A DNA stretch of 64,000 bases, from assembly GCA_026671195.1 (NCBI GenBank), contig JAPOHD010000068.1, positions 1-64,000 of the forward strand, in the 5' to 3' direction. The notes below the pieces were generated by a model. The model worked only from the letters and a program-made list of their open reading frames with translations, did no database searches and was not told the origin of the DNA. Source of the stretch: Draconibacterium aestuarii. GTDB taxonomy: Bacteria; Bacteroidota; Bacteroidia; Bacteroidales; Prolixibacteraceae. Positions within the stretch are counted from its first letter, which is position 1; every line of letters starts with the position of its first letter. A program made the position numbers and the translations under genes. Positions 33,869 through 57,365 of the stretch are shown one piece after another.

Positions 33869-34154
33869 TCAAAATCGTTGTTTTGGCTTCAAAACATGAA
33901 AATTGATTTTCAAAATCGTTGTTTTCTGCGCAAAACACGAAAAAAAACTGTCAGGATTGTTGTTTTGTATTCAAAACGTGAAAATTGACTGTCAAAATCG
34001 TTGTTTTGGTTTCAAAACATAAAAATGGATTTTCAAAATCGTTGTTTTCTGTGCAAAATGTGAAAATTGACCATCAAAATTGTTGTTTTGAGTTCAGAAC
34101 GAGAAAATAAAACTCGAAACCATTGTTTTGTATCCGTAATACATAAATAAACCG
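33869..34154. repeat. 41-bp tandem repeat array, seven imperfect copies
   Basis: Units begin with TCAAAATCGTTGTTTT and start at 33869, 33910, 33951, 33992, 34033, 34074 and 34114; the period is 41 except for one step of 40. Each unit splits into two half-units of 20 and 21 bp that both begin with TCAAAA or a variant of it, and GTTTTG / CAAAAC within the unit forms a dyad of 5-6 bp. All positions drift, so there are no unique spacers. It fills most of the 421-bp gap between the Omp85 gene and the lipoprotein gene. The remaining 34155-34263 shows no gene. Confidence 0.85.
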
Positions 34155-34263
34155 TCGGTTTTGCTTTTCCCATCTTAACGACAAAAATCATCATGTCAAC
34201 GAAAAAATTCGTCATTCATATAAATAGCGTTTACATTTGATTTATAAATTAAAATCGAATAAA

Positions 34264-34899
34264 ATGAAAACACGGAATTTTACACTTGCCATACTCCTGG
34301 CAATTTTTCTATCGGGGTGTGTTGTATATTCGTTCTATCCGCTTTACACCGAAAAAGATTTGTTTGAAAACGATATACTTTTGGGCGAGTGGTTCGAAGA
34401 GGATAACCAGGACGTTACATTTACCGACGATGACGATGAGTGGACATTTGAGCATCCGTTTATTGGGAATAAAAAAGATGGCGTTCGCGACAAAAAATCC
34501 TATCGCTTAACACTAAAGTCAAAAGAAAATGATGTCATAACGGAGTCGGTTTTTAAGGTGCATGTTATCGAACTTGCCGGTCAGTATTTTCTCGATTTTT
34601 ACATTGAAGATTATGGTGATGACGATGATATTACCTTGTCGACTTTACATTTAATTCCGGTACATACTTTTGCTAAACTAACTGTGCAGCACAACGACAG
34701 GCTTGAAATCAGGTGGTTCGATCCGGAATGGCTCGAAAACCTGATTAAGGAAAATAAAATCAGGATTCACCACGAAAACAATGGCGATTTTATTTTACTA
34801 ACTGCCAGGCCAAAAGAGCTGCAGAAATTTGTAACTAAATATGTTGATTCTGAAGAAGCTTTTAAGGACGGACTTGAGGTGGAACTGCATCGGAAATAA
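34264..34899 (+). CDS. Small acidic lipoprotein, first gene of a LytS/LytTR unit
   Basis: The start is set at 34264, because from there a lipoprotein signal peptide with L-S-G-C (Cys19) appears directly; the longer frame from TTG 34237 would put nine odd residues before it. The mature part of about 190 aa is acidic and beta-rich, with no domain I recognise. The stop codon touches the start of the histidine kinase (TAA then ATG), so the two are translated from one message. The lipoprotein may be a target or an input of the kinase. Its function is unknown. Confidence 0.82.
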   Translation: MKTRNFTLAILLAIFLSGCVVYSFYPLYTEKDLFENDILLGEWFEEDNQDVTFTDDDDEWTFEHPFIGNKKDGVRDKKSYRLTLKSKENDVITESVFKVHVIELAGQYFLDFYIEDYGDDDDITLSTLHLIPVHTFAKLTVQHNDRLEIRWFDPEWLENLIKENKIRIHHENNGDFILLTARPKELQKFVTKYVDSEEAFKDGLEVELHRK

Positions 34900-35934
34900 A
34901 TGAAAACGTATATCAAACATATACTGGCGGGTTTGGTGAAAGACAGGATATTGCAACATGTCCTGTTTTGGTGTTTGTCGTTTTTAATTCTCTTGAATGT
35001 TCTTAAAGTTTCGGCCGAAGTAAAACGCATCGATCTTGTTTATACAGCGGTTTTTCATCTTCCCATTGTTTTGGTGGTTTATTTTAATTTGCAACTCTTG
35101 TTTCCGCTGGCCTGGTACCGCGGCCACTATTTTGCCTATGGCACTGCGGTTGTTGCCCTGGCTGCCTTTGGCTCGGGGTTTTACCTGCTGCTTTTCGACC
35201 GCCTGATCGACCATGTTTTTACCGGCTATTATTTTATTGCCTATTACAGCTTCTGGGATATTTCGCTGTATTTTGCCATCTATCTGTTTTTGTCGAGCCT
35301 GTTGCATTTGGCGCGGGGGTGGTTTCGGGTGCAGGAACTGGAAAATGAAAAAACAATGGCAGAACTGAAGGCACTAAAGTCGCAGGTAAATCCGCATTTT
35401 TTATTCAACTCGTTAAACAGTATTTACAGCCTTGCCCGAAAGGAATCGAAAGAAGTTCCCGATAAAATTGTACAGTTGAGTGACCTGATGCGGCACATCA
35501 TTTACGATTCGGATGTCGATTTTATTCTGTTGGAAAAAGAGGTGGAAATGGTTCGTAATTATATTGAATTGCAAAACTTACGTACACAAAAGGAAAATAA
35601 AATTCAGTTCGAAACAGTGGGGGAGTTTCGGGGGAAAAAGGTTGCACCATTACTATTTCTTCCTTTTATTGAAAACAGTTTTAAACATGGATTAAAGAGC
35701 GGGATAAAAAACGCGTTTGTAAAAATAAAGCTTCAGGTTTCGGGTAAAGTGCTTTATTTTGACATTGAAAACAGCAGAGGTGCGTCAGCTGAACCTATTA
35801 ATTTGAAATACAACGGGATTGGCATTGAAAATGTAAAAAAACGTTTGGAATTGATTTATCCCGATCAGCATTTGCTTGATATTTCTGAAACAGATGACAC
35901 TTTTAAAGTACTTTTACAGGTGCAGTTAAAATAA
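34900..35934 (+). CDS. LytS-type sensor histidine kinase
   Basis: The 344-aa membrane sensor has about four transmembrane segments (residues about 22-36, 46-70, 77-100 and 108-137), a short coiled linker, and the His_kinase domain with K-S-Q-V-N-P-H166-F-L-F-N-S-L-N-S, where His166 is the phosphorylation site. An ATPase part with F-I-E-N-S-F-K-H-G and G-I-G-I-E-N-V-K-K-R-L completes it. The partner is the LytTR regulator 128 bp downstream. No sensory domain is seen outside the membrane, so the signal may be sensed within or near it. Confidence 0.94.
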   Translation: MKTYIKHILAGLVKDRILQHVLFWCLSFLILLNVLKVSAEVKRIDLVYTAVFHLPIVLVVYFNLQLLFPLAWYRGHYFAYGTAVVALAAFGSGFYLLLFDRLIDHVFTGYYFIAYYSFWDISLYFAIYLFLSSLLHLARGWFRVQELENEKTMAELKALKSQVNPHFLFNSLNSIYSLARKESKEVPDKIVQLSDLMRHIIYDSDVDFILLEKEVEMVRNYIELQNLRTQKENKIQFETVGEFRGKKVAPLLFLPFIENSFKHGLKSGIKNAFVKIKLQVSGKVLYFDIENSRGASAEPINLKYNGIGIENVKKRLELIYPDQHLLDISETDDTFKVLLQVQLK

Positions 35935-36062
35935 GGAGAAAGATCTCGCAAAGACGCAGAGATACAAAGAGAGAACAGAATTATGAATCATTAAATAGAA
36001 TAGACCTTTGGCGAAGGTACTTATTTGTCTTCCGACTTCGGTCTTCCAACTTCGAGTTAAAA

Positions 36063-36746
36063 ATGAAACTAAATTGCCTGATAATCGATGATGAGCCACT
36101 TTCTCAGGATATACTTGAGGATTTTGTAAAAGCATGCCCGGAACTTAACCTGGCTGGCATTTGCAGCGATGCTTTGGAAGCCGGTGAGGTTCTTAAACAA
36201 GAACAAGTGGATTTACTTTTTCTGGATATTAACATGCCGCGGCTCAGTGGAATTGGTTTTGTAAAAAGCCTGAAAGAACCGCCGTTGGTTATTCTGGTTA
36301 CGGCTTACCCCGATTATGCCATTGAAGGATTCGAAATTGAAGCCCTCGATTATCTATTAAAACCTGTTTCTTTCGAACGGTTCAGAACAGCTGTAAATCG
36401 TGCCGTCGAACGTTTTGAGGCAAAAGAAGATGCAGGATCGCAGCATATTATGGTGCGGGCCAATAAAAAGAATTACCGCCTTAATTACGATGAAATTTTA
36501 TTCCTGGAAGCACAAGGCGATTATGTGCGGTTTGTAACCGGGGAGCAAACACTTATAGTCCACGGAACTCTGAAGGATTTTATAGAACAACTTCCCCCAA
36601 ATAAATTCGGACGTATTCATAAATCATATGTAATTGCACTGGGTAAAGTGGTTTATCTTGAAGGTAATAGGGTAAAACTGGGCGAGTACAAATTACCCGT
36701 TAGTCTCAGCTATAAAGACGAATTATTCGAAAAGTTAAAGTTGTAG
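36063..36746 (+). CDS. LytTR-type response regulator
   Basis: The 227-aa regulator has a receiver domain with acidic Asp9/Asp10, phospho-acceptor Asp55 (F-L-D-I-N-M-P) and Lys100 (L-L-K-P), and then a LytTR DNA-binding domain from about 128 to 227 (I-L-F-L-E-A-Q-G-D-Y-V-R-F; I-H-K-S-Y-V). It is the partner of the kinase at 34900. In the gap before it, two imperfect 14-bp direct repeats (cttccgacttcg and cttccaacttcg types at about 36030-36056) are of a kind common in Bacteroidota spacers. Confidence 0.95.
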   Translation: MKLNCLIIDDEPLSQDILEDFVKACPELNLAGICSDALEAGEVLKQEQVDLLFLDINMPRLSGIGFVKSLKEPPLVILVTAYPDYAIEGFEIEALDYLLKPVSFERFRTAVNRAVERFEAKEDAGSQHIMVRANKKNYRLNYDEILFLEAQGDYVRFVTGEQTLIVHGTLKDFIEQLPPNKFGRIHKSYVIALGKVVYLEGNRVKLGEYKLPVSLSYKDELFEKLKL

Positions 36747-36764
36747 TAAAGTTCAACCCTCAGT

Positions 36765-36914
36765 ATGCATTAAAAAGTCTATCGTGCATTGAAACTACTT
36801 CAAAACAAGGCGCTTCACTCACTTGCTTCAACTCTCCAAAACGGTATTATACCTCGTCTCAGCAAGTGCTTGTTTTATTGTATTTTCAATGCTCATAACA
36901 ATTCCTTAATGCAT
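36765..36914. repeat. 150-bp imperfect palindrome between convergent genes
   Basis: Four blocks of the left arm recur, in order, as the reverse complement in the right arm: ATGCATTAA (36765), GCATTGAAA (36786), AAAACAAG (36812) and CACTTGCT (36820), paired with AGCAAGTG (36861), CTTGTTTT (36869), TTTTCAATGC (about 36883) and TTAATGCAT (36906). The left arm has 10 extra bases between the third and fourth block, and the loop is about 33 bp. It could be a MITE-like element or a decayed recombination site. No reading frame of note is inside. Confidence 0.7.
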
Positions 36915-36946
36915 ATCCATGTTTAAAGTCTTGGTTTAAAACAGAC

Positions 36947-36978
36947 AAAAAAAAGCACAAACCAACTGATTTGTGCTT
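36947..36978 (-). terminator. Rho-independent terminator of the FadL-type gene
   Basis: AAGCACAAA pairs with TTTGTGCTT around an 8-nt loop. On the minus strand the hairpin is followed by a run of eight T, as expected for the gene ending at 37002. Confidence 0.88.
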
Positions 36979-37001
36979 CCCTAATTAATTTATATATTTT
37001 T

Positions 37002-38504
37002 CTAAAATTTAAATCCTAAAGTAAGAAGTACGTCGTTGTTTATGATTTTTTGTTCAATCCATCGCGGTTCAGGATAAGTAAACCTGCCTTCAATCGGATT
37101 TGCGTAAGGTAGAGCAAAATCATTAATAAAGGAATATTTATAGGCCACATCAACAAAGAATGTTCCTGCCCGGTAACCGATACCACCTGAAATAACATTT
37201 AAATTTGCATCGGAATTGGGTTGCGACGCACCCAGCGCATAGCTGTTGTATGCCGACTGTTGAAATTGGTAACCACCACGCAAACTTACTGCATTGTTAA
37301 CCCTGTATTCGCCTCCAATACGAAGATTGCCTGCCGTTTTGTATGAGTCAGAGATATCCATATTCTCATCACTGAAATTATATCCGTCTCCACCGTGTCT
37401 GAGTTTTGCACTTCCATAGTTAATCAGCTCATAATCCACACTCAGCAAACCTTTCTTTGCAATAATAAAAGCACCGCTAAATGTTGTTCTTAACGGAGTT
37501 TCCAAACGATAATCGTAGTAATTACGTGGTGAGTATTCTTCGTAGTTTGAAAGTCTTCCGCTTTCATCTTCAATGGCCGATTGCATCGAGGTTGTATGCT
37601 CATCAGTCAACCTGTAAAAAGTTGGTGTTTGCAACGAAATTCCTAAACGCACTTCATTAACCGGTTTATAAATGGCACCAAACTTAAAGTTATGGCCGTA
37701 ACCGTATGTTTTTAGTGTATTGTTAAAGGTGAAATCATTAAAATAGGGAATATTACCAGCGGCGTCAACCTCATAAATCTGCCATGCTTCGCGGTAGTAT
37801 ACATCGGTTAAACCATACGATGCTCCCAAATAAAATTTGTGATTAAAATTAAGTCCTATTGCAAAAGAATACTCGTCAATAGAACCACTTGTTGAAGTAG
37901 CTTTTCTTTGGTTTTGTCCATAACCTGCATCACCTAATTCTGTCCAATATTCATCCAGTTCTTCATCGTAGTTTAATACGTATGTTTCCCAGGCCAGATT
38001 CTCATAATGATCGCTCCAGTGTCCTGCATTCGCATACGATGCAATGTAGTCCATAAACGAACCATCCACACCGTTTCCTACAGCCAGCGCATTGCTGCTG
38101 AAATCTTTTAAACGATTGTATCCAATTCCCAGGTTTACACTAACTAATCCTGCTTCGTTTGTTTTAAAAGTAGGCAAGGTAGATACATAGCTAATATTAT
38201 TTAGCGTAAATTTATAGTCCGTGTCATCAACATTACTTCCCCAGTAGCTACTTTCAGTTTTTGTGTGTTTCGATACCGGCGTAATTGCGAATTCACTTGA
38301 ACGATACAGCCCTAATCCGGCAGGATTTATACTTACTGAAGTAAAATCACCACCAAGAGCTCCGAATGCATTTCCCATGGCACCTGCCCGTGCAGTTCCC
38401 TGCACCTCAAATTGCGAAAAACGAAGAGCATCTGAAACACCTTGCGCACTGATTAGAAAAGGCACAAACAATGTAATCAAAAGTAGTATTGCACTTTTTT
38501 TCAT
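37002..38504 (-). CDS. FadL/OmpP1-type outer-membrane transport protein
   Basis: The 500-aa barrel protein has a signal peptide (ending I-S-A-Q-G) and the start typical of FadL-type porins in Bacteroidota: A-L-R-F-S-Q, G-T-A-R-A-G-A-M-G-N-A-F-G-A-L-G-G-D and S-I-N-P-A-G-L-G. The C-terminus L-L-T-L-G-F-K-F ends in Phe as outer-membrane barrels do. Family members carry hydrophobic compounds such as fatty acids; the substrate here is unknown. It lies 48 bp behind the low-complexity lipoprotein gene on the same strand and may be co-transcribed with it. Confidence 0.9.
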   Translation of the reverse strand: MKKSAILLLITLFVPFLISAQGVSDALRFSQFEVQGTARAGAMGNAFGALGGDFTSVSINPAGLGLYRSSEFAITPVSKHTKTESSYWGSNVDDTDYKFTLNNISYVSTLPTFKTNEAGLVSVNLGIGYNRLKDFSSNALAVGNGVDGSFMDYIASYANAGHWSDHYENLAWETYVLNYDEELDEYWTELGDAGYGQNQRKATSTSGSIDEYSFAIGLNFNHKFYLGASYGLTDVYYREAWQIYEVDAAGNIPYFNDFTFNNTLKTYGYGHNFKFGAIYKPVNEVRLGISLQTPTFYRLTDEHTTSMQSAIEDESGRLSNYEEYSPRNYYDYRLETPLRTTFSGAFIIAKKGLLSVDYELINYGSAKLRHGGDGYNFSDENMDISDSYKTAGNLRIGGEYRVNNAVSLRGGYQFQQSAYNSYALGASQPNSDANLNVISGGIGYRAGTFFVDVAYKYSFINDFALPYANPIEGRFTYPEPRWIEQKIINNDVLLTLGFKF

Positions 38505-38552
38505 GACAAAAGTTTTTTTGTTAATATTTTCTGTTAGATAGTAGTCTGCTGT

Positions 38553-39926
38553 TTATCGTCTGCTACTGCCCGAACTTCTTGAACTACCACTGCTTGAAGA
38601 ACCTGAACTTCTTGATGAACTGCCAGAAGAACCACTGCTGTAGCTTCGGCTGCTACTGCCGCTGCTACTGCTACTACTTCTGTAACTGCTTCCACTTCTG
38701 CTACGTGATGAAGAGCTACTTACGCTGCCGCTCGATTTTGTTGATGAAGGAGCCCTGTAGCTTCTTGACGAAGTGCCACTACTTGAACTTTTATTGTAAG
38801 TAGAGCTTGATCGGTAGCTTTTATTGTACGTAGATGAAGAACGAGGTGCAGCATAACCTGAAGACGACGATTGTGTCCGGTTACTATTGCTAACCACACG
38901 TGGTGTCGAATAAGAGCTACGAGTACTGCTGCTTGGACGTGTGTAACTTTGTGTACGAGCTGTTGAAGCTGATTTTGTTGTTGTCGCACGTGTTAAATCT
39001 GTCGAAGAAGAACTTCTTCTTCTTTCGGTTAATACTTGCGAATTTGCAGTTGATCTGTCAGTACTTCTCGTAGTTGTTGCTGTTGATCTGTCGCGCGATG
39101 TTGTTGCCGATTTTGTTCCGGCACTATTTAATCTGCTGTTTGTGCGTGAATTGGATGCTGAAACTGCCGATGAACTTCTCGAACCACTATCTCTTCTTAC
39201 ATTTGTGTCAGATGATCTTCGTTGTCCATAAGTATAATTCCTACCTCCGCCGGGATAAATCGGATGCGATGGATAACCGGGGTAATAACCGCCACCCCAG
39301 CCGGGATAGTATCCTCCGCCCCAGCCCCAGCCAGGATAACCCCATCCCCAGGCGTAACTGGGATAGCCCCATCCTAAACCATAGCGAGGATAGCCCCATC
39401 CCCAGCTCCAGGATAACGACCATGATGGACCATACCATGACGAGTACCATGGATCGTAGAATGGATCGTAGTAACACCAGCTGTCCCAGTAAAAAGGATC
39501 GTAATAAAATGGACGGTGGAAACGACGGATGCGGTAAGCGTAATCTAATTCATCTCCATCATAATAGTTATTAATGACGTATTTCATTTCATCATCATCA
39601 TAATAAACGGTTGTATCGCTGTCTTGCATTTCCATTTGGTCCATGTTGTAGCGCAATACATCCGCATCTTCTTCGCTGCCTTCAAAAATGTAGTTGTTCA
39701 TTGTATTCGAACCATCATCATTTTTTCCAATTTGGCTAATAATCATCGTATTTGCTGATTTCTCAACCGGTTTTTCGGCTACTTTTTCTTCAATTACTAT
39801 TGGTGGAGGTACGTCTCCCGGATTGAAATAAATGTCATCGGAATATGTGCCGGAAACGTAACTCCCCGTGGTACAGGCTCCTAAAAAAATGGCCAGCACA
39901 CCTAATAATGTTAATCTTGATTTCAT
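38553..39926 (-). CDS. Low-complexity lipoprotein: acidic, then Tyr/Trp/Gly-rich, then Ser/Arg-rich
   Basis: The 457-aa protein has a lipoprotein signal (L-G-A-C, Cys18), an acidic part to about residue 130 (many Asp/Glu and Y-Y-D-D-D), an aromatic glycine-rich part at about 131-235 with repeats of Y-P-x-Y-G-L-G-W-G-type, and a tail at about 236-457 made nearly only of Ser, Arg, Thr, Gly and Tyr. Charge thus runs from negative to positive along the chain. I know no function. The tail could bind polyanions or polymerise; the composition also makes it a poor subject for homology search. Codons in the tail (many TCT/AGC/AGT) are repetitive and may be length-variable between strains. Confidence 0.82.
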   Translation of the reverse strand: MKSRLTLLGVLAIFLGACTTGSYVSGTYSDDIYFNPGDVPPPIVIEEKVAEKPVEKSANTMIISQIGKNDDGSNTMNNYIFEGSEEDADVLRYNMDQMEMQDSDTTVYYDDDEMKYVINNYYDGDELDYAYRIRRFHRPFYYDPFYWDSWCYYDPFYDPWYSSWYGPSWSLSWSWGWGYPRYGLGWGYPSYAWGWGYPGWGWGGGYYPGWGGGYYPGYPSHPIYPGGGRNYTYGQRRSSDTNVRRDSGSRSSSAVSASNSRTNSRLNSAGTKSATTSRDRSTATTTRSTDRSTANSQVLTERRRSSSSTDLTRATTTKSASTARTQSYTRPSSSTRSSYSTPRVVSNSNRTQSSSSGYAAPRSSSTYNKSYRSSSTYNKSSSSGTSSRSYRAPSSTKSSGSVSSSSSRSRSGSSYRSSSSSSGSSSRSYSSGSSGSSSRSSGSSSSGSSRSSGSSRR

Positions 39927-40024
39927 AACGTATCCTCCGTTTATTTAATGTCAATAATAATTACTTTATTTGTAAGCTCAAAATATAATTAAGTTAAAAC
40001 AAAATCTATACCAAATATTAGATT

Positions 40025-41500
40025 ATGGCGAAAGAATTGACTTCGCGAAGCGAAAATTATTCACAATGGTACCAGGATTTGGTAATGAAGGCAGACCTTG
40101 CAGAGAATTCAGCAGTAAGAGGATGTATGGTTATTAAGCCTTATGGTTATGCTATTTGGGAGAAAATGCAGGCCGAGTTAGACCGCATGTTTAAAGAAAC
40201 GGGTCATGTAAATGCATACTTCCCATTATTTATCCCAAAATCGTTTTTTAGTAAAGAGGCTGACCACGTTGAGGGCTTTGCCAAAGAATGTGCGGTTGTT
40301 ACCCACTATCGTTTAAAAAATGACGAGGAAAATGGCGGTGTGGTTGTCGATCCGGATGCAAAACTGGAAGAGGAACTGATTGTTCGTCCTACTTCGGAAA
40401 CGATTATATGGAATACTTATAAAAACTGGATTCAGTCGTATCGCGATCTGCCAATTTTGGTTAATCAGTGGGCCAATGTGGTGCGTTGGGAAATGCGTAC
40501 ACGTTTGTTTTTACGTACCTCCGAATTCCTGTGGCAGGAAGGGCATACAGCTCACGCAACAAAAGCAGAAGCTATTGAGGAGACTGAAAAGATTATAAAT
40601 GTGTATGCCGATTTTGCTGAAAATTATATGGCAGTTCCGGTTATTAAAGGATTAAAATCGGCAAACGAGCGTTTTGCAGGTGCTTTGGAAACCTATTCCA
40701 TTGAAGCCTTAATGCAGGATGGTAAAGCATTACAATCGGGAACCTCACACTTTTTAGGTCAAAACTTTGCAAAAGCCTTTGATGTAAAATTTGCTAATAA
40801 GGAAGGAAAAGAAGAATATGTTTGGGCTACATCATGGGGAGTTTCAACCCGTTTGATGGGGGCACTTATTATGGCTCACTCCGACGATAATGGTTTAGTT
40901 CTGCCTCCAAAACTGGCTCCTCACCAGGTGGTAATTGTTCCAATTTACCGTAACGAAGAACAGTTGGCAGCTATTACTGAAAAGGTAGATGAGATTATAG
41001 CCAAATTAAAAGTAAAAGGTATTTCTGTGAAATACGATGACCGCGATACACGCAAACCAGGCTGGAAATTTGCAGAGTACGAATTAAAAGGAGTACCGGT
41101 GCGTTTGGCAATGGGACCACGTGATTTGGAAAACGGAACCGTTGAGGTTGCTCGTCGTGATACATTGGAAAAGAATGTCACTGAACTAGAAAATATTGAA
41201 GAATACATTGAAAATCTGTTGGAAGATATTCAAAACAATATTTTCAAAAAAGCGGCCGATTACAGAACGGAACACACTACCAAGGTGGATACCTGGGAAG
41301 AGTTTAAAGACGTTTTGAAAAATAAAGGAGGTTTTATCTCGGCACACTGGGATGGCACACCAGAGACTGAGGATCTGATTAAGAATGAAACCAAAGCAAC
41401 CATTCGTTGCCTTCCTCTGGAATACGAAGAGGAAGAAGGTGTTTGTATATACTCGGGTAAGCCATCGAAACGAAGGGTTTTATTTGCGTTGGCATATTAA
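40025..41500 (+). CDS. proS: Prolyl-tRNA synthetase, short archaeal/eukaryotic type (ProS3)
   Basis: This enzyme charges tRNA-Pro with proline. The 491-aa class II enzyme shows motif 2 (R-W-E-M-R-T-R[15 protein letters not shown]), the R-P-T-S-E-T motif, motif 3 (A-M-G-P-R-D region belongs to the anticodon half), an anticodon-binding domain from about 290, and the extra C-terminal domain ending in Ala-Tyr. It lacks the editing insertion of the long bacterial type. The short type is the usual one in Bacteroidota. It is a single gene with its own terminator. Confidence 0.97.
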
Positions 41501-41536
41501 ATGTCGATAGGCAAAAAAATACAATATTTTTAAAAG

Positions 41537-41568
41537 AAGCAGCTCAAAAGGGCTGCTTTCTTTTTTTA
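41537..41568 (+). terminator. Rho-independent terminator of proS
   Basis: AAGCAGC pairs with GCTGCTT around an 8-nt loop, followed by TCTTTTTTT. Confidence 0.9.
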
Positions 41569-41613
41569 TACTGATTGCTTTGCTTAATTTAGATTTTAAA
41601 ATCAAAGAGCAAA

Positions 41614-42300
41614 ATGACAGAAAAAGAAGTTCGGGCGTCATTTCTTGAGGCGCTGGTTATCAAATCAACAGTTAAACAAAAAGTTTACACCAACACACAG
41701 CAAACCTTTACCATCTTAAAAAAGGTATTGAATCAGTTGGAAAAGGACTACTTGAAAGCTGTTAAAGGCAAGGTGTCCGATGTTGTACTGCCTGAATATA
41801 AGGAACGTGGCCCATTTGAGGTTGAGTTTAAAATAGGAGGTGATTTGCTTATTTTTAGTATGCATTCCAATGTATTCGAGTTCGACGACAAACATCCGGT
41901 TTGGAAAACTGCTTATATCGAGGAAGATCCGATGCGCTCCTATTGCGGCACAATTAATATTTATAATTTTTTGGCCGATTCTTTTAAATACAACCGATTA
42001 AATGATTTAGGATATCTGGTGGCCCGTATTTTTGTAAACAAAGACAATCACTTTTTTGTAGAAGGGAAACGTCAGTCAGATGAATTGGTAAAAGATTTTT
42101 CTATCGATACCATTTCTCCGGGAGTAATCAGGCAAATTGTAGAGACAGCCATTCAGTACAGTATTGAATTTGATTTATTGGTACCTCTCTACGACCAGAT
42201 TAAAGTAGCCACAGTTGATCAAATGCGTCAAAAAATTAGTCATTCTAAAATGACAACCGGAAAACGCCTTGGGTTTGCATTTAATTCGGATGATGTTTGA
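41614..42300 (+). CDS. Conserved hypothetical protein (228 aa, cytoplasmic)
   Basis: I do not recognise a domain. The protein has no signal peptide or membrane segment, is mixed alpha/beta, and has a look typical of conserved cytoplasmic proteins: E-V-E-F-K-I-G-G-D-L-L-I-F-S-M-H-S-N in a beta-strand pair near residue 70 and a helical C-terminus. A short AT-rich gap separates it from proS and from pepT, so it may be its own transcription unit. In the gap to pepT (42301-42433) a nine-base phrase with CAGAGTTAAG/GAGTTAAGAG repeats was seen but nothing functional. Confidence 0.8.
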   Translation: MTEKEVRASFLEALVIKSTVKQKVYTNTQQTFTILKKVLNQLEKDYLKAVKGKVSDVVLPEYKERGPFEVEFKIGGDLLIFSMHSNVFEFDDKHPVWKTAYIEEDPMRSYCGTINIYNFLADSFKYNRLNDLGYLVARIFVNKDNHFFVEGKRQSDELVKDFSIDTISPGVIRQIVETAIQYSIEFDLLVPLYDQIKVATVDQMRQKISHSKMTTGKRLGFAFNSDDV

Positions 42301-42433
42301 GCTCTGAGTTAAGAGTTCATTCTTCAGAGTTAAGTTTCAGTTTGTAGTTGTTAAAAGGAAATATACTTTTGCGTGTTAGTGTAAATAGGAATAAAGTAAC
42401 AAGGCACAGATTGAAAACACATGATATAGAACT

Positions 42434-43660: not shown

Positions 43661-43667
43661 ACCACAG

Positions 43668-47220: not shown

Positions 47221-47282
47221 AAACGTGGTTTTCCGCTTTTCTCCCCCGAAAAACATTTATTTCCCCCTGCTTTTTTACTCTC

Positions 47283-47540
47283 CGCCCCTTGAGGCAAATC
47301 CTGTGCCCCAATATTTTTGTTTTGTGCCCCTTGGGGACGGCTTTGCGAAAATGGGGGCTGGTATTGAGCCCCTTGGGGATCGTTCTTCGAAATCAGGGGA
47401 TTATCTCGTGCCCCTTGGGGCGAAGCTTGTGCCCCAATATTTTTGTTTTGTGCCCCTTGGGGACGGCTTTGCGAAAACGGGGGCTGGTATTGTACCCCTT
47501 GGAGATTGTTCTTGGAAATCAGGGGATTATCTCGTGCCCC
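47283..47540. repeat. 42-bp tandem repeat array with GCCCCTTGGGG cores
   Basis: Units of 42 bp begin with GTGCCCCTTGGGG or variants; three successive unit types form a 126-bp higher-order repeat that occurs nearly twice (GCCCCAATAT at 47305 and 47431). One unit type splits into two 21-bp halves that both start with GTGCCCC. The core CCCCTTGGGG is palindromic. Because 42 is divisible by three, frames of about 119 codons stay open on the plus strand (from 47208 and 47225) and would give a 14-residue P-L-G-D repeat, but they lack a ribosome site and codon sense, so I call it noncoding. The GC content is well above the surroundings. The rest of the 502-bp gap shows nothing else. Confidence 0.82.
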
Positions 47541-47679
47541 AAATATGGCGTTGTTCTAAAATAGGTTTACACAAAAAGTAAACTTATGGCAGGACTAATA
47601 ATGTATCGTAAAAAAACGGGTGCCTGTAAATCGTTTGCTAATTCGTTTGGTTTTGCAGTCTGTATATTTCTGGTAAGAG

Positions 47680-48591
47680 CTATTGAGTTAGTTTCCAGCC
47701 AATAGAAAAGGTATGCGCATTACCAACCATATGTGTTGAGTTCAATGCGTTTTCGGAAGTATAGCTAAACATTAATTTTCGAACAGGGATTTGGGTATAT
47801 ATAAAAATCGAATTCTCGCTCCGGTAGCCCAGGCCTACTTTTAAATGGGTAAAGTCGAAAGCAACCGAAGTATCGTAACAGAAACGTTCCAGTCGTGAAT
47901 TGCGCAAGGTCATTCCGGGTTCAAAATGAATTTTATCGTATAGTTGGAATGTGTAGCTACTGCTGACATAATATTTCCTGTAATTTTCAATATCAGCGAT
48001 CGCGGCATTGTCAAAACTGTAATCACCGGGAGCTAAATTTAGTACCGAAAGTGCGATGCTATATTTTTCTCCATGAATTGCTGCTCCAAAACCACCATCC
48101 AGTATAAATGCATTATTGTTGCCGGTTAAAAGCCTGGGATCGTCACCTTCGAGCGGCGAAAGAGATGTAACGTTAATGGCAAGGTTTTCCACTATTCCCG
48201 ATAATCCAAGCGAGAGCACAGTGGCCCGGTTTAGTTGAATATGATAGGCGTAAATAAGCTGAAGTATATTTTGTTCGAATGGGCCGATTTGTTCTTTTAA
48301 GAACGCAAGGCCAAGTCCTACATCGGGTTGAAAGCCATAGTTACGTTTGTGCTTTTGGCCTTTGGGAGCAAACGAAAAACTGAGCATGTAATCGTTTAGC
48401 GGTTTAAAACCGCCTGCCCAAACATTGTGTACTGCAATATCTGCCGCCATGTTGCTATTGAAACAGGCAAACGAGGGATTATTCAGCATGGGATTAATAT
48501 GCGAATAATAATGATACGGAAAATCCTGGGCATTTAATGCGTTTACAAAAAATACCAGAAGTAGCACAACTGTATTTCTGAATCTGTTCAT
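47680..48591 (-). CDS. PorP/SprF-family type IX secretion membrane protein
   Basis: The 303-aa barrel protein has a signal peptide (ending L-N-A-Q) and the family start Y-Y-S-H-I-N-P-M-L-N-N-P-S-F-A, then barrel strands ending in F-S-I-G-W-K-L-T-Q. PorP/SprF members anchor or help attach T9SS cargo that carries a type B sorting domain. The upstream gene encodes such a cargo, and its stop overlaps this start by ATGA (48588-48591), so they are translationally coupled. Confidence 0.94.
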   Translation of the reverse strand: MNRFRNTVVLLLVFFVNALNAQDFPYHYYSHINPMLNNPSFACFNSNMAADIAVHNVWAGGFKPLNDYMLSFSFAPKGQKHKRNYGFQPDVGLGLAFLKEQIGPFEQNILQLIYAYHIQLNRATVLSLGLSGIVENLAINVTSLSPLEGDDPRLLTGNNNAFILDGGFGAAIHGEKYSIALSVLNLAPGDYSFDNAAIADIENYRKYYVSSSYTFQLYDKIHFEPGMTLRNSRLERFCYDTSVAFDFTHLKVGLGYRSENSIFIYTQIPVRKLMFSYTSENALNSTHMVGNAHTFSIGWKLTQ

Positions 48592-51341: not shown

Positions 51342-51648
51342 AAGCTGGTTTTGTTACATAAGTGTTGTCTATTTTGACCAAATTTCATGCCATGGTAGCT
51401 AATTTATGTGATTTGAAGCATCATTATTTTGGTTTTTTGAGTGTAGTATTTATGCTTTTAAAAATACATAAGCTGATTGGTAGTATCAAATTTATGTAAA
51501 TAAAATTTTTATATGTGCTAAATTTACTCTCCATCCAGGCGAGGTTTTAATGTTAGATGATTTTCCATGCAAGAATATTTTTCAACGATGACAGTGTGGT
51601 TCTTGTTAAGTCGGTATCGAACGATCTTTGCCTCGCACACCAGGGCAC

Positions 51649-51667
51649 TCCTCCCAGTAGGAGGAGA
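51649..51667. other. Perfect 7-bp GC-rich hairpin in the 467-bp gap
   Basis: CTCCTCC pairs with GGAGGAG around the loop CAGTA, with no T run on either side. The gap 51342-51808 otherwise holds AT-rich sequence with promoter-like TTTG elements on both ends for the divergent genes. No reading frame is convincing. The hairpin includes a GGAGGAG that resembles a ribosome site but no start follows it. Confidence 0.4.
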
Positions 51668-51808
51668 AACGTTGTACAGTATTATGTTTTAGATGGATTC
51701 AGTGGAATGAATATTTTTTAGCGCCATGTTAAAATAAGAGGTCCTATTAAACGTTTATCATAACAAAATAATTTTTAACATCATTTGCATAAATAAGTGT
51801 GACTTATT

Positions 51809-52378
51809 ATGAGTTCAGTAACTGAAGATGAATTAGAATTAATCCGCCACCGCGAGAAATTGCGAAAATCGGCTGCGACCGATGAAATTAATCGTTTGCG
51901 AAGTCATAATCGTAAACTAAAACGTCAGGCTACCGGAATACTTTACAGCGCAATTGGGTTTGTACTTGTTGCTGGTAGTCTTTTGGTATTAAACAGTTGG
52001 TTATTTAAGGAAAACACCACACAAGTTTCAACAGAAATTTTGATAGTACCCGACGAGCAGGCAGAGGCGGTTTTGGTAAATTATACCGAAATCCCTCCCC
52101 AAGATAGTAATCTCATCTTTGCGATTCAGCTGGGGGCTTTCCGAAACAGGATATCGACTTTCCCCAATTTCGACAACAACGATATTGAACAACTCTGGGA
52201 CGGAAAATACTATTTGTATTACACTGGAAATTATGCCACTATTGCCGAGGCCGAAAATTTTGCATTTCAGCTGCGCCAAAACGGGCACAAAGGTGCATTT
52301 GTTATTCCAATATATAAAAGTCAAAAGATTAGCTGGGAAGAGGCGAATGTCATTTTGCGAAAGACGACATTCAATTAA
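51809..52378 (+). CDS. Membrane-anchored SPOR-like domain protein
   Basis: The 189-aa protein has a charged, coiled-coil-like N-terminus in the cytoplasm (residues 1-40), one transmembrane helix (about 42-62), and a periplasmic part whose end (F-A-I-Q-L-G-A-F-R at about 109-117; L-W-D-G-K-Y-Y-L-Y-Y-T-G; A-E-N-F-A-F-Q-L-R-Q-N-G) matches the SPOR fold that binds denuded peptidoglycan at division or growth sites. The family name of the whole protein is not known to me. Confidence 0.85.
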   Translation: MSSVTEDELELIRHREKLRKSAATDEINRLRSHNRKLKRQATGILYSAIGFVLVAGSLLVLNSWLFKENTTQVSTEILIVPDEQAEAVLVNYTEIPPQDSNLIFAIQLGAFRNRISTFPNFDNNDIEQLWDGKYYLYYTGNYATIAEAENFAFQLRQNGHKGAFVIPIYKSQKISWEEANVILRKTTFN

Positions 52379-52667
52379 ATCAGTTAGACTGTGATTGTGG
52401 TCTTCAAAATCACATAGTCGAATTCCTGTCCATCTGGTTAGGCGGGGATCAATTTCATTAAAGTATGAGTCGATAATTGGGGTGCGATACTCGCTCCAAA
52501 GGGCGAAAAAGCCTGATTTGTCATCCATTTGCCAACCAGATTGATACTTGTTCCCCAAAGCGAATAAAATACGCCGGTATTTCATTTTACACCAATACCA
52601 CCTAACTTTGATTAGGTTTTCGGCAGAATGGTTTTGAAACAACAACTTTCACAACCAGGAGGGAAGT

Positions 52668-55600
52668 ATGATGGGAAAGATAAAGTATATAGGCATTGAT
52701 ATTGGTTCGGTTGCCATTGCACTGGCGATACTTGATTCCCGTAAACAAATCGTACACACTGCCTATGCTTTTCACAACGGACGTATTGTGGAAAACCTGC
52801 AGAAATTATTTCACGACACTGATCTCAGTGAGGTGCGATCCATTGGCTACACTTCTTCATCTCCTTCCATTTTCAGTCAGGGGAAGGAGGTCGATTCACG
52901 TATTGCATATATCTCGGCTGCCAGGCACCTTCACCCCGGATTACGGTCGTTACTTATTGTGGGTGCCGAAAAGTTCGGGCTGGTTTCGTTCGATGAAAAC
53001 GGCGTTTACCGGAACTTCAAATCCAACTCATCGTGTGCAGCCGGAACAGGCAATTTCCTCGATCAGCAGGCCGAGCGGTTGAACCTCGCAAACATTCAGG
53101 AGTTTAGCTGGCTGGCTTATGAGAACACAGGAGAATGTCCTCAAATCGCTTCGCGTTGTGCCGTATTTGCCAAAACCGATTTGATTCATGTACAGCAGGA
53201 AGGTTATTCACTGGGTGAGATCTGCGATGGATTGTCGTACGGACTGGCAAAAAATATTGTGGATACGGTATTTCAAAACCAAAACAGCAGCCAAGTGGTT
53301 GCCGCCGGAGGAGTCGCCTTAAACAAAGCCGTTATCGGGCACATCGAACAATTGACAGGTTGTACAATCACAGTTGGTGAATATCCGCATTTGTATGGCG
53401 CCATCGGTGCGGCCCTGCAAACTTTAGCCGATGAGGAAGCTGCTGTTGGTGTGCTGAAACAAGCGGTAGATTTTATAAACACAGAAAAGAAGGAGCGGCA
53501 CTATTATTATCCATCCCTACAATTAAAACTTTCGGATTACCCCGATTTTGGGTCACACGAAACCTATGAATTCCGTTCCGCAATTTTTCCTTCGATGAAG
53601 GCAGTTGAAGTGGATGTATACATTTCGGTGGAAGATAAAACAGAACTGGGAGTGTATCTCGGAATTGATATCGGGTCGACCAGTACCAAGGCGGTGTTGC
53701 TCGACATACAGAAGGAAGTTATTGCCGGATTTTATACCCGCACTTCGGGGCAGCCCTTACAGGCCGTTCAGCTGCTTTTCGAATGTATCGATGATTTTTC
53801 GACAAAGAGGAATGTTCAGTTTGAAATACTTGCCGCAGGCACAACAGGATCGGGCAGAAAATTTACAGGGCAAATTATCGGGGCCGATACCATTGTTGAT
53901 GAAATATCGGCGCATGCCCGGGCAGCGTACGAGTTAAATCCCGAAACCGATACCATCATTGAAATTGGGGGGCAGGACTCGAAATTTACGCTGATGCACA
54001 AGGGGATGGTAACTTTTTCGGTGATGAACAATGTATGTGCGGCCGGAACCGGTAGTTTTATTGAAGAGCAGGCCAAACGACTGGGATGTTCTTTGTTCAA
54101 CTATGCCGACCGGGTGGAAAAAGTACAGTCGCCCATGGCCAGCGACCGGTGTACCGTTTTTATGGAGCGCGATCTGAATCATTACCTGATGGCAGGCTAT
54201 TCGTCGGATGAAATTCTGGCTGCCGTATTACATTCCACCCGAGAAAATTACCTGATAAAAGTGGCCAAACAAGGCAACATTGGGAATACTATATTTTTCC
54301 AGGGAGCCACAGCAAAAAACAGGGCCTTGGTAGCCGCCTTCGAGCAAAAACTACAAAAGCCGATTCTGGTTTCCAGGTATTGCCATTTAACCGGTGCATT
54401 GGGTGTAGCTCTCGATCTGCACGATAATCCTTTGGAGGTGTCAAAATTTAAAGGGCTTGATTTATACCGGAAATCCATTCCCATTCGCTCGGAAGTGTGC
54501 CAGCTGTGTACCAACCATTGCAAACTAAAAGTGGCCGAGGTGGATGGCCGGACAGAAGCCTATGGTTTTTTGTGTGGCCGCGATTACGAGGTGAACAAAT
54601 ATGTACAGAACAAGAACGCTGCCTTTCAGTTGATCAGGAAACGAAATCAGTTGTTCAGGGTAAAACCAACCACAAAACAGTCCACACTGACCATTGGTAT
54701 TCCCGCCGGCCTGCATTTGTACGAAGAGGTTTCGTTCTGGCAGAAATTCTTCGATCTGCTATCGATCCGGACCGTGACAAGTGCCGATTATACATCGCCG
54801 GTAAAAGACGGGAAGAAGTTAACGGGCGCCGAGTTTTGTGCACCCATTGCCGCGTTGCACGGTCATGTAGATTATTTGAAAGATAAGGCCGATTATATTT
54901 TCCTGCCCACCTATCTGGAAGAACACCAGTCGGGAGAAAAAAACAGACAATATTGTTATTACACGCAATTTGTTACTTCGGTTATCTCGGTGCAGAAAAA
55001 CATCATCAAACGCGAAAAGCTGCTTATTCCTTTGCTGAAGTCGGCACAGGGCGAGTTGTTTAACCGGCTCGAGTTGTATCGTATGCTGAGAAAAACCGGG
55101 ATCAGCAATCTGAACTTTGTAAAACTTACACTGGCCTACGAAACGGCAAAAAAAGAGCATCATGCAGCCAGAGAAAAATGGCGTGCACTTTACCGGAATG
55201 AGATCGAAGCGAATGACGACATTCATATTATGCTATTGGGCAGGCCTTATACCGTGTTGTCGCGAGCCATGAATAATCACATCCCCACGATTTTTGAGAA
55301 GATGGGCGTGAAGACTTTTTTTATGGATATGCTGCCCGGTGAAACCCGACCGATCACAAAATCGGAAGAACTGATAAAAGCCATGAAGTGGAAATTCGCT
55401 TCAAAAATTCTGCGGGCTGCTGAGGTTGTGGCACAGACTCCCGATTGTTACCCGGTGCTGATTACTTCGTTTAAATGTACTCCCGATTCGTTTGTAATGG
55501 AGTATTTCAAAGATATTCTGGATGCATATACTAAACCGTACCTGATTTTGCAACTCGACGAACACGACTCGGCAGTGGGGTACGAAACACGCATTGAAGC

Positions 55601-57029
55601 CGGAATCCGTGCTTTTCGGAATCACCGCGAAAGAAAAGAACAGGAACCCGGCAGTGATGTTCCGGAGATCAATATAAAACAAAAAGCCACCATTCCCATT
55701 TCCAATCACGCCTGGAACGATCCTGTTAAATCGCTGGTTAACGAAGCCTCGCGTATTCTGCAAAGTCACAGTATCGATTTTAAGTTGTTCAGTAAGTCCA
55801 TTCAACAAATTGAGGTGCCCGAAACCCAGTTATCGGATCCCATTATTACCGGGGCAAAAAACATGAAAGGCAAAACCTTGTTGCTTCCTTCTTACGATCT
55901 CTACTCCGGGCCGCTGCTCGAAGCTGTACTTCAGAACAGTGGAATTGATGCACGGTTAACAGCTTGTACCCTTGAATCGACACAACGCAGTTTGAGTTTT
56001 AACACCGGCCAGTGTATTCCGCTAAATATTATTGTACAAAATGCCATTGATTATATCGAAGAAAACAAGCTAAATCCGGCCGATACTTTGCTGTGGATTA
56101 TGCAAACCGAGTTGACCTGCAACCTGAGCATGTTTCCTCACTATATGAAAAAATTGCTGAATAATTACGGGAAGGGAATGGAGCAGGCTTCGGTATATGT
56201 GGGGCACATGATCTTTTACGATTTCTCGTTGCCAACGGCCATAAATGCGTATGTGGCGCACATGTTCAGCGGGTATATTCGTCGGATAAGTTGCGGCATA
56301 CGGCCTTATGAAAAACAGGCTGGTGCAACCGATGCTGTTATTCAGGAATCGTTACAGATGCTGTACGATGTGTTTCTTACCGGGAAATCAAAAGAACAGG
56401 CGCTGGAAAAGATCATCCGCGATTTTGAGGCCATTGAAACGGTAAAAACAGACCGCCCCAAGGTGGCGATATTTGGCGATTTATATGTGCGCGACAACGA
56501 CCTGATGAACCAGAACCTGATACAAACTATTGAGGCAAACGGGGGAGAGGTAATTACCACACCCTACAGCGAATACGTGAAGATTATTGCCGAACCCATG
56601 AGCGAACGGTTTTTTAAGGAAGGTTTTTACAGGAAATATGTGCAGACTAAATTTTTAACCTCGCTGATTCCGCTGGTGGAAGGTAAATACCGGAAATACC
56701 TCGACGGATTTTCGGGTACAGAGCAGGCGATACAGGCCGCAGAAGCTGATGACTGGTTGAATGCGTTTGGCCTGAACATTTTTCAGCGGGGCGAGTCGAT
56801 CGAGAATATCCTGAAAATTCATCACCTGATGAAACAGCACCCCGATCTGGATTTGTTTATTCAAACCAATCCTTCGTATTGTTGCCCGTCGCTGGTTACC
56901 GAAGCCATGAACTCAAAAATAGAAGAGCTGACAGGTGTACCCGTGTTAACCATTGAGTATGACGGGACGGCCGGCTTTAAAAACCAGGACCTGATTCCTT
57001 ATCTCAAGTACCGAAAGAAAAAGAACTGA
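52668..57029 (+). CDS. Giant acyl-CoA dehydratase activase fusion (two BadF/HgdC ATPase domains, DUF2229, HgdB-like part)
   Basis: The family's activators hydrolyse ATP to push an electron into 2-hydroxyacyl-CoA dehydratases or benzoyl-CoA-type reductases. In this 1453-aa protein, two ASKHA ATPase domains (about 1-270 and 325-590) both keep the cluster motif C-A-A-G-T-G-x-F (Cys123 and about Cys456) and the second cysteine in S-R-C-A-V-F (Cys164) and D-R-C-T-V-F (about Cys495). A cysteine-rich linker (C-Q-L-C-T-N-H-C, about 610) follows, then DUF2229 (about 690-910) and a C-terminal dehydratase-like part (about 1080-1453). Such fusions are common in anaerobic Bacteroidota, where their substrate is unknown. 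The start has an unusually strong AGGAGG site 8 bp upstream for this phylum. No separate dehydratase gene is nearby. Confidence 0.93.
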   Translation: MMGKIKYIGIDIGSVAIALAILDSRKQIVHTAYAFHNGRIVENLQKLFHDTDLSEVRSIGYTSSSPSIFSQGKEVDSRIAYISAARHLHPGLRSLLIVGAEKFGLVSFDENGVYRNFKSNSSCAAGTGNFLDQQAERLNLANIQEFSWLAYENTGECPQIASRCAVFAKTDLIHVQQEGYSLGEICDGLSYGLAKNIVDTVFQNQNSSQVVAAGGVALNKAVIGHIEQLTGCTITVGEYPHLYGAIGAALQTLADEEAAVGVLKQAVDFINTEKKERHYYYPSLQLKLSDYPDFGSHETYEFRSAIFPSMKAVEVDVYISVEDKTELGVYLGIDIGSTSTKAVLLDIQKEVIAGFYTRTSGQPLQAVQLLFECIDDFSTKRNVQFEILAAGTTGSGRKFTGQIIGADTIVDEISAHARAAYELNPETDTIIEIGGQDSKFTLMHKGMVTFSVMNNVCAAGTGSFIEEQAKRLGCSLFNYADRVEKVQSPMASDRCTVFMERDLNHYLMAGYSSDEILAAVLHSTRENYLIKVAKQGNIGNTIFFQGATAKNRALVAAFEQKLQKPILVSRYCHLTGALGVALDLHDNPLEVSKFKGLDLYRKSIPIRSEVCQLCTNHCKLKVAEVDGRTEAYGFLCGRDYEVNKYVQNKNAAFQLIRKRNQLFRVKPTTKQSTLTIGIPAGLHLYEEVSFWQKFFDLLSIRTVTSADYTSPVKDGKKLTGAEFCAPIAALHGHVDYLKDKADYIFLPTYLEEHQSGEKNRQYCYYTQFVTSVISVQKNIIKREKLLIPLLKSAQGELFNRLELYRMLRKTGISNLNFVKLTLAYETAKKEHHAAREKWRALYRNEIEANDDIHIMLLGRPYTVLSRAMNNHIPTIFEKMGVKTFFMDMLPGETRPITKSEELIKAMKWKFASKILRAAEVVAQTPDCYPVLITSFKCTPDSFVMEYFKDILDAYTKPYLILQLDEHDSAVGYETRIEAGIRAFRNHRERKEQEPGSDVPEINIKQKATIPISNHAWNDPVKSLVNEASRILQSHSIDFKLFSKSIQQIEVPETQLSDPIITGAKNMKGKTLLLPSYDLYSGPLLEAVLQNSGIDARLTACTLESTQRSLSFNTGQCIPLNIIVQNAIDYIEENKLNPADTLLWIMQTELTCNLSMFPHYMKKLLNNYGKGMEQASVYVGHMIFYDFSLPTAINAYVAHMFSGYIRRISCGIRPYEKQAGATDAVIQESLQMLYDVFLTGKSKEQALEKIIRDFEAIETVKTDRPKVAIFGDLYVRDNDLMNQNLIQTIEANGGEVITTPYSEYVKIIAEPMSERFFKEGFYRKYVQTKFLTSLIPLVEGKYRKYLDGFSGTEQAIQAAEADDWLNAFGLNIFQRGESIENILKIHHLMKQHPDLDLFIQTNPSYCCPSLVTEAMNSKIEELTGVPVLTIEYDGTAGFKNQDLIPYLKYRKKKN

Positions 57030-57166
57030 GTGCTTCAATTCAATAAAAACGGGAAATATATATTCAGTAAAGAGCCCAAATCGCTAAAAGTTTATTCCAG
57101 CCAATACCGGAGAAAACAACACCCGGAAAAGAATGATGTAATGCGTGAAGTGGCTGATTAACAGTA

Positions 57167-57365
57167 TCCTGTTACGACTTGGGGCATCCTGTTGGTTTTT
57201 ACCTCTCCCTGTTCTGTTTTTGGCTCTCCCTGTTACACAGGACGGCAAAAAAGTGAACAGGATTCAAAAAAAAATGCAACAGGATGATTAAATAGGGTAC
57301 AGGGCCGCTAAAAAACCTACAGGAAGCCTAAAAAATAGTACAGGACACAAAAAATAGTAACAGGA
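57167..57365. repeat. 20-22-bp repeat array with orientation switch and phased A-tracts
   Basis: TCCTGTT or CCCTGTT occurs at 57167, 57187, 57207 and 57228; the complementary form AACAGGA (or CACAGGA, TACAGGG, TACAGGA) follows at 57236, 57256, 57278, 57298, 57318, 57339 and 57359. Steps are 20-22 bp (one of 8 bp at the switch point). Between the cores lie runs of 5-9 T (left half) or A (right half), so the tracts recur about every two helical turns, which predicts curved DNA. The array fills the middle of the 495-bp gap 57030-57524; I see no gene in the rest. Confidence 0.85.

What the first reader, a model, noticed from the sequence alone, without database searches (positions are those of the whole stretch)
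33869..57365. Three unrelated intergenic arrays share one architecture with a 20-21-bp step
The arrays at 33869-34154, 47283-47540 and 57167-57365 have different core sequences (TCAAAA, GTGCCCC, TCCTGTT), yet all have a basic step of 20-21 bp (two DNA turns), inverted cores, A/T or G/C tracts in phase, lengths of 200-290 bp, and a site downstream of a plus-strand gene. The same design with different sequence suggests that a common process makes or uses them, which might be an undescribed repeat-generating or DNA-organising system.
Basis: inference. Interest (0 to 1): 0.75.

Follow-up and report, generated by a model that had tools for sequence, protein, structure and literature searches.

The report
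Helix-phased DNA arrays with partner proteins
Arrays of short DNA motifs repeated every two turns of the double helix are scattered through this bacterium's genome, and many arrays of this kind sit right beside genes for small uncharacterised proteins whose motif changes along with the protein, which points to an undescribed family of DNA-addressing systems.

Summary
The three window arrays are significant (0 of 1000 shuffles each). In 1.26 Mb of the same genome (Draconibacterium relatives), 16 of the 18 strongest noncoding tandem signals show a 20-22-bp lattice. Cores recur at distant loci. The new result is partner genes. Three uncharacterised protein families lie beside such arrays: an unnamed ~240-aa family (array downstream in 45 of 59 genes), DUF6261 (45 of 57, 43 of them upstream) and PQLLE/NF052641 (6 of 8, upstream; all six above the family cut-off). 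Control ORFs: 2 of 114. Many arrays are dyads that flip orientation within one helical turn. Spacers of dyad partners do not pair (0.399 versus 0.403), which argues against hairpins. Motif similarity tracks protein similarity (Mantel r 0.67, permutation maximum 0.23). Array 3 has a remnant of such a gene just upstream; array 1 belongs to the sequence family of a DUF6261-linked array. Best reading: helically phased duplex-DNA site arrays read by the adjacent gene's product. Binding, protein structure and role are not shown. Nine literature searches found no description.

The parts
33869..34154 (.). Array 1: seven 41-bp units with inverted CAAAA/TTTTG cores every 20-21 bp; same sequence family as the array beside a DUF6261 gene at C64:2532-2990 and a solo array at C12:112201
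47283..47540 (.). Array 2: 21-bp lattice of GCCCC / GGGG (CCCCTTGGGG palindromes), duplicated as 2 x 126 bp; same core at three other loci of the genome
57167..57365 (.). Array 3: four TCCTGT-type sites in one orientation, then seven ACAGGA-type sites in the other, step 20-22 bp, innermost sites 9 bp apart
   Evidence: same core and similar flanks on both sides at L070
57030..57158 (+). C-terminal remnant (matches of 31-43 residues, one stop inside the match) of the unnamed array-partner family, ending 8 bp before array 3
   Evidence: 57006-57134, E 6.6e-4; tblastn, 50-55% identity over 31-36 residues; hmmsearch E 1.4e-4
33859..33870 (+). left copy of a 12-bp direct repeat AAATAAACCGTC that brackets array 1
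   Evidence: D. orientale, D. sediminis and D. mangrovi lack the array at this site
34145..34156 (+). right copy of the 12-bp direct repeat; the distance of 286 bp is also close to seven array units, so it need not be a target-site duplication

Best explanation
The arrays are rows of duplex-DNA binding sites. Each site is a core of about 6-8 bp, repeated every 20-21 bp (two turns), so that all sites lie on one face of the helix. Many arrays are a dyad: sites in one orientation, a flip within about one turn, then the other orientation. Each paired array is read by the small protein encoded beside it: an unnamed ~240-aa family related to PQLLE, PQLLE itself, or the not detectably related DUF6261. 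The proteins would line up along one face and form a nucleoprotein body, symmetric where the array is a dyad. Solo arrays such as arrays 1 and 2 are either further sites for a protein encoded elsewhere (array 1: perhaps a DUF6261 protein) or remains of modules whose gene was lost (array 3). Shown: gene-array pairing, helical lattice, dyad, core conservation against spacer change, covariation of core and protein. Inferred: that the protein binds its array, and every later step. Most likely role, weakly supported: architectural (an anchor, boundary or pairing site, mostly near gene 3' ends) rather than a promoter switch.
For: Pairing: unnamed family, 45 of 59 genes with a lattice array (0 of 100 shuffles) downstream and 2 of 57 upstream. 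DUF6261: 45 of 57 genes (own genome 8/8, 29 loci of other genus members 23/29, rest of phylum 14/20), 43 upstream and 2 downstream (a first run gave 13/20 for the phylum set). PQLLE: 6 of 8 upstream and 0 of 8 downstream; the two without are the two below the family's cut-off. Control ORFs of 180-300 aa: 2 of 114, both flanking the same array. Geometry: steps in 20 dyad arrays 21 (113), 20 (52), 22 (3), 41 (8), 42 (3), 40 (2); innermost cores of the two arms start 8-10 bp apart in 20 of 21 arrays. Spacers of dyad partners are no more alike than those of non-partners (0.399 versus 0.403; 20 arrays, centre units left out), which speaks against arm-to-arm pairing in RNA or cruciforms. Eight TGCGAG modules from eight genomes (proteins 66-91% identical): core identity 0.91 and spacer 0.50, against 0.93 and 0.45 for units that do not correspond; a column about one turn from the core (T in the rows read by eye) is 0.84 identical. 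Protein identity versus core similarity over 38 modules: Mantel r 0.673, maximum of 2000 permutations 0.231. In 9 of 10 compared (partly overlapping) pairs the array is less conserved than the gene; in one (L174/L175: upstream flank 99%, gene 93%, downstream flank 95% identical) the array is 61% identical yet keeps core and lattice, and L176/L177 differ by a gap of exactly 21 bp.
Against: No binding data and no structure; the families gave no significant match to a known DNA-binding domain. Covariation of core and protein would also arise from joint descent of linked gene and array. The core finder favours steps of 20-22, so the step counts are partly selected, and the dyad arrays tested were picked by hand. 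In 12 of 38 arrays sites lie in one orientation only, which an RNA reading could also use. Of the 16 lattice arrays in the sampled genome only 3 (L021, L070, L077) have a gene of the three families beside them. A lattice array (L113) lies in a genome without the unnamed family; whether it has the other two is not known. Fourteen of 59 and 12 of 57 genes have no significant lattice array. In L176/L177 the array is more conserved than the gene.
Confidence: 0.68

Rival explanations
1. The arrays act as RNA: 3'-UTR or leader structures, or repeated RNA motifs bound by the partner proteins.
For: In the unnamed family the first core lies 1-164 bp after the stop codon in 37 of 38 arrays and 247 bp after it in one; 12 of 38 have sites in one orientation only.
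Against: Spacers of dyad arms show no pairing. RNA folds of the three window arrays are not beyond shuffles (z -1.5, -1.2, -0.9). Half of the motifs of a dyad array would be antisense in any transcript. DUF6261 and PQLLE arrays lie mostly upstream of the gene.
Confidence: 0.12
2. Relics of replication or partition loci (iteron or parC-like arrays plus their binding protein) left by integrated plasmids or other elements.
For: 20-22-bp repeats beside the gene of their reader are what iterons look like (recalled). Remnant genes occur at array 3 and L169, and species differ in their modules.
Against: One query protein of the unnamed family has no match in 72,556 plasmid or 50,697 phage records, and none in viral contigs. 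Up to ten DUF6261 genes per genome, three protein families, dyad layout. Neighbouring replication or partition genes were not searched for systematically.
Confidence: 0.12
3. REP/BIME-like elements or slippage minisatellites without a binding protein.
For: Palindromic units, mostly at gene 3' ends; near-exact 105-126-bp duplications inside arrays; an array pair 85% alike over 348 bp at two loci; sites without the array in relatives.
Against: Cores differ between families with no common tag seen. Only two Y1 transposase hits in the genome, with no array in their fetched flanks. The lattice is kept while spacers are close to unrelated. Three gene families sit beside arrays.
Confidence: 0.05
4. 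Ordinary transcription-factor sites: the proteins are regulators and the arrays are their operators, with solo arrays as a regulon.
For: DUF6261 and PQLLE arrays are mostly upstream of their genes. Array families recur at several loci.
Against: The unnamed family has its array downstream of the gene. Arrays are common in convergent and rare in divergent gaps (10 and 2 of 18, against 25 and 45 of 163). Ten or so sites per array would be unusual for an operator (recalled).
Confidence: 0.2

Closest known systems
Plasmid iterons and Rep initiators (recalled)
   Same: tandem sites of about 20-22 bp, in phase with the helix, beside the gene of the protein thought to read them
   Different: several modules per genome, dyad layout, no Rep-like domain found, three protein families
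ParR/parC and other centromere arrays (recalled)
   Same: rows of sites on one face of DNA next to a small partner gene
   Different: no known DNA-binding fold found by profile; cores differ between modules; ParM- or ParA-like neighbours were not searched for
REP/BIME arrays and RAYTs (PMC3733652: passages seen)
   Same: inverted repeats in arrays in intergenic DNA
   Different: fixed 20-21-bp lattice, cores by locus family without a GTAG or CGTC tag seen, partner is not a transposase by profile
TAACTGA heptamer repeats of Beggiatoaceae, Cyanobacteria and some Bacteroidetes (PMC4679880: abstract and passages seen)
   Same: intergenic short-repeat arrays, also found in Bacteroidetes
   Different: one heptamer sequence repeated directly; the proposed binders are S1, Csp or Csr proteins; no adjacent partner gene in the passages seen
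DUF6261 (PF19775) and PQLLE family (NF052641)
   Same: they are two of the three partner families
   Different: both are catalogued without function; a full-text search listed one paper with DUF6261, on daptomycin resistance in streptococci (listing only), and none with PQLLE

Membership tests
REP/BIME with RAYT | palindrome carrying a constant GTAG or CGTC tag | tested here: not met
   cores vary (TGCGAG, TCCTG, AAGAT, CCCCTTGGGG, CAAAA...); no common tag in the printed arrays, judged by eye
REP/BIME with RAYT | Y1 transposase flanked by the repeats | tested here: not met
   two PF01797 hits; no signal at score 0.55 or more in their loci L119 and L120
CRISPR array | near-identical repeats of 20 bp or more separated by spacers, with cas genes | tested here: not met
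   about 6-8 bp conserved, many arrays with inverted sites; cas genes were not searched for
Plasmid iteron / Rep | Rep initiator domain in the partner protein | tested here: not met
   unnamed family: no Pfam family matches more than one of 27 members at E 0.1, best E 0.013
Plasmid iteron / Rep | array needed for replication | not testable with these tools
   needs an experiment
Minisatellite by slippage | units homologous along their whole length | tested here: not met
   TGCGAG modules: spacers 0.45-0.50 identical while cores are 0.91-0.93; some arrays do hold true duplications
PQLLE family (NF052641), for the unnamed family | score over the curated cut-off of 80 bits | tested here: not met
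   19.9-35.7 bits for three proteins; 17 of 27 members match at E 0.01 or better; related by profile comparison (hhalign probability 91.8). Two other genes of the genome, at C21:2458 and C20:736512, do pass
DUF6261 (PF19775) | score over the gathering cut-off of 27 bits | tested here: met
   8 of 8 matches in the genome; profile comparison finds no relation of the unnamed family to it (hhalign probability 1.7)

The most novel reading that the evidence does not exclude
A phylum-wide, undescribed class of addressable chromosome-organising systems. Each genome carries a set of small proteins, each with its own DNA address written as a helically phased array. A protein assembles on its own array and on distant arrays with the same address, and joins or marks those loci. 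Protein families without detectable kinship have arrived at the same DNA geometry, and addresses change as proteins diverge.
Probability: 0.3. Interest if true: 0.95.

Novelty: categorically new. Interest (0 to 1): 0.85.

Why it matters
Two catalogued families without function (DUF6261, PQLLE) and one uncatalogued family gain a concrete, testable partner: a DNA array written beside the gene. Because each module states its own probable recognition motif, dozens of protein-motif pairs can be read from genomes, which could make the recognition rule of an unknown DNA-binding protein directly learnable. If the arrays organise chromosomes, they would be an address system of a kind for which the searches here found no description.

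Tried and rejected
RNA folding of the three arrays: no signal beyond shuffles. A transposase as maker: two Y1 hits, no array in their fetched flanks. Coding repeats: steps of 20, 22 and 41 are not multiples of 3. Arm pairing: the first run seemed positive because the central palindrome was included; one search leaves it out and finds none. Folding the TGCGAG arrays on a fitted dyad mis-registered some rows and was replaced. Plasmid, phage and viral homologs: none found with one protein of the unnamed family, its small alignment and three DUF6261 proteins (viral contigs only). Signals that are not this system: a duplicated tRNA-Asp gene (L150, lag 115), L140 (45), L045:7366 (127), L074 (103). 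Of 14 noncoding signals at 0.55 or more in the 40 stretches of relatives, 9 have lattice lags (20-22, 41, 42, 102) and 5 do not (115, 45, 47, 54, 14); one of the 9 (L123:3918) is not clear by eye. The 200 kb of G026, G027 and G039 in that set hold no noncoding signal. Common ancestry of DUF6261 and the unnamed family: no support. Literature: nine searches; no description of these arrays found.
Full report
OBSERVATION. The arrays at 33869-34154, 47283-47540 and 57167-57365 are real. Their best autocorrelations (lags 41, 42 and 20) are reached by 0 of 1000 dinucleotide shuffles each. Array 1 is seven 41-bp units with CAAAA/TTTTG cores every 20-21 bp; array 2 is a strict 21-bp lattice of GCCCC and GGGG; array 3 is four TCCTGT-type sites followed by seven ACAGGA-type sites, with 9 bp between the innermost two.

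GENOME-WIDE TEST. The window lies in a 6.37-Mb genome whose nearest named relatives are Draconibacterium and Maribellus. In 61 stretches, 1,259,000 bases with 167,481 noncoding, I measured self-similarity at lags 10-129. Eighteen noncoding signals score 0.60 or more; their lags are 22, 41, 42, 103, 105, 123, 126 and 127. Sixteen show a 20-22-bp lattice when printed; two (L045:7366, L074:7849) do not. Coding signals (14 at 0.54 or more) have lags in multiples of 3. The first 20 stretches were largely chosen around matches to array 1; in the 40 systematic stretches there are 7 such noncoding signals, 5 with the lattice. In three relatives sampled at 200 kb each, and 200 kb of three more distant ones, 9 of 14 noncoding signals at 0.55 or more have lattice lags; each of the three near relatives has at least one, the distant ones none. 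G006 is D. orientale by its contig length. E. coli K-12, 200 kb, has no noncoding lattice array.

CORE FAMILIES. Array 1 is 78% identical over 204 bp to an array on C12, after a gene whose product reads like glycine dehydrogenase (by eye), and similar to one on C64 beside a DUF6261 gene. Array 2's CCCCTTGGGG core recurs on C66, C62 and C15; on C66 as near-perfect 21-bp units. Array 3's core and similar flanks on both sides recur at L070. So the same cores are written at several loci. Relatives lack array 1 at the orthologous site, and D. mangrovi has 284 bp with an array between two conserved stretches where D. sediminis has 15 bp: arrays come and go.

PARTNER GENES. Comparing arrays and flanks showed a ~240-aa protein gene directly upstream of several arrays. 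It looks helical by eye; no structure was predicted. It has no Pfam family shared by more than one of 27 members, a sub-threshold match to NCBIfam PQLLE (17 of 27 members at E 0.01 or better), no convincing solved relative (best E 0.32) and no plasmid, phage or viral-contig match. The genome has eight genes and two C-terminal remnants; one remnant is at window 57006-57134, just before array 3. The family occurs in 22 of 37 genus genomes at E 1e-10, in 15 of 295 order genomes at 1e-8, own genome included, and in a draw of 395 phylum genomes only in the own genome. Of 60 genes whose loci were handed out (not all matches), 59 had enough DNA downstream: 45 of 59 have a significant lattice array there, one has a significant array of another lag (32), and 2 of 57 have a lattice array upstream.

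Reading the neighbours of other arrays led to DUF6261 (PF19775). The genome has eight such genes and all eight have a lattice array, seven upstream and one downstream. Of 57 DUF6261 genes (8 own, 20 from the rest of the phylum, 29 from other genus members; loci handed out, not all matches) 45 have one, 43 upstream and 2 downstream. Two flanks in that set hold a significant array of another lag (L242 upstream, 23; L256 downstream, 31). DUF6261 occurs in 26 of 37 genus genomes, up to ten per genome, and in 11 of 395 phylum genomes. The PQLLE family is in 5 of 296 phylum genomes: six of eight matches have a significant lattice array upstream and none downstream; L233 also has a significant non-lattice signal downstream. 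The six are those above the family's cut-off, and two of them are from a GC-rich genome (G425). Control ORFs of similar size in the same genome: 2 of 114, both flanking one array. The unnamed family and PQLLE are related by profile comparison; DUF6261 is not detectably related to the unnamed family. So protein families without detectable kinship sit beside the same DNA geometry.

ANATOMY. In 38 arrays of the unnamed family with a confident core, 26 have at least three sites in each orientation and 12 do not. In 20 hand-picked dyad arrays the steps are 21 (113 times), 20 (52), 22 (3), 41 (8), 42 (3) and 40 (2); the method looks for steps of about 20-22, so larger departures would be missed. At the centre the two orientations are 8-10 bp apart in 20 of 21 arrays, about one helical turn. 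If the arms paired in RNA or a cruciform, spacers of mirror units should complement each other; they do not (0.399 against 0.403 for non-mirror units). I infer that sites are read one by one on duplex DNA.

EVOLUTION. In eight TGCGAG modules from eight genomes, cores are 0.91 identical and spacers 0.50, hardly above the 0.45 of units that do not correspond; a column about one turn from the core is 0.84 identical. In 9 of 10 compared pairs (partly overlapping) the array is less conserved than the gene; the exception is L176/L177 (array 0.87, gene 0.83), which differ by a gap of exactly 21 bp. L174 and L175 share 99% of the upstream flank, 93% of the gene and 95% of the downstream flank, yet their arrays are 61% identical with core and lattice kept. 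Flank comparisons put these modules in at least three upstream contexts. Across 38 modules, protein identity and core similarity correlate (Mantel r 0.673; maximum of 2000 permutations 0.231), as expected if each protein reads its own core, though joint descent alone would also give a correlation.

POSITION. Of 18 arrays (the 16, array 3 and L062), 10 lie between convergent genes, against 25 of 163 intergenic gaps of 150 bp or more; divergent gaps hold 2 of 18 against 45 of 163. Of the 16 lattice arrays of the sample, 3 have a gene of the three families beside them (L021, L070, L077); the others are solo or have an unrecognised partner.

MECHANISM. Shown: lattice, dyad, gene pairing, conservation of core and phase. 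Inferred: binding by the partner protein, assembly along one face, and reading of solo arrays in trans. The biological role is open; I favour an architectural role over a promoter switch because of position and size, with low confidence.

LITERATURE. Nine full-text searches gave no description. The nearest, TAACTGA repeats (PMC4679880; abstract and passages seen) and REP elements (PMC3733652; passages seen), differ in layout and partner. The library lacks most subscription papers and all preprints.

Noticed in passing
L040:860-1183 and 1300-1650: A 107-aa orphan protein (PQLLE profile E 0.41 only) lies just before an AAGAT/ATCTT lattice array; similar cores occur in arrays at L030 and L036. 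Possibly a fourth partner family.
   Followed up: partly
window 57388-57424; L070:14429-14565; L147:16057-16194; end of L165: A shared stretch (TTTTCCTAAAATAGCTTGACAGATT...) lies on the far side of several TCCTG/TCCTAC arrays; at L147 a pair of ORFs that reads like an IS3-type transposase (by eye) is nearby.
   Followed up: partly
L174 and L175 downstream of the gene: Two genomes with nearly identical flanks carry arrays only 61% identical, and differences rise at the very 3' end of the gene, as if the array had been exchanged with that of another module.
   Followed up: partly
L169 (C67:51790-51951): C-terminal remnant of the unnamed family with three stops, next to a 42-bp-period TTGGCAA array.
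   Followed up: no
window 33859-33870 and 34145-34156: 12-bp direct repeat AAATAAACCGTC at both ends of array 1; relatives have no array here. Could be a target-site duplication or just array units.
   Followed up: partly
L113:3635-3755 (G026, another family of the order): A 21-bp TTGCGGACGG array beside the homolog of the window's peptidase gene 57525-59573, in a genome without the unnamed family.
   Followed up: no
genomes G118, G221 and G310 (one genus of another family): Nine, five and seven matches to the unnamed family per genome, some broken: an expansion outside the window's genus.
   Followed up: no
window 47680-48591 (-): PorP/SprF type IX secretion protein gene beside array 2.
   Followed up: no
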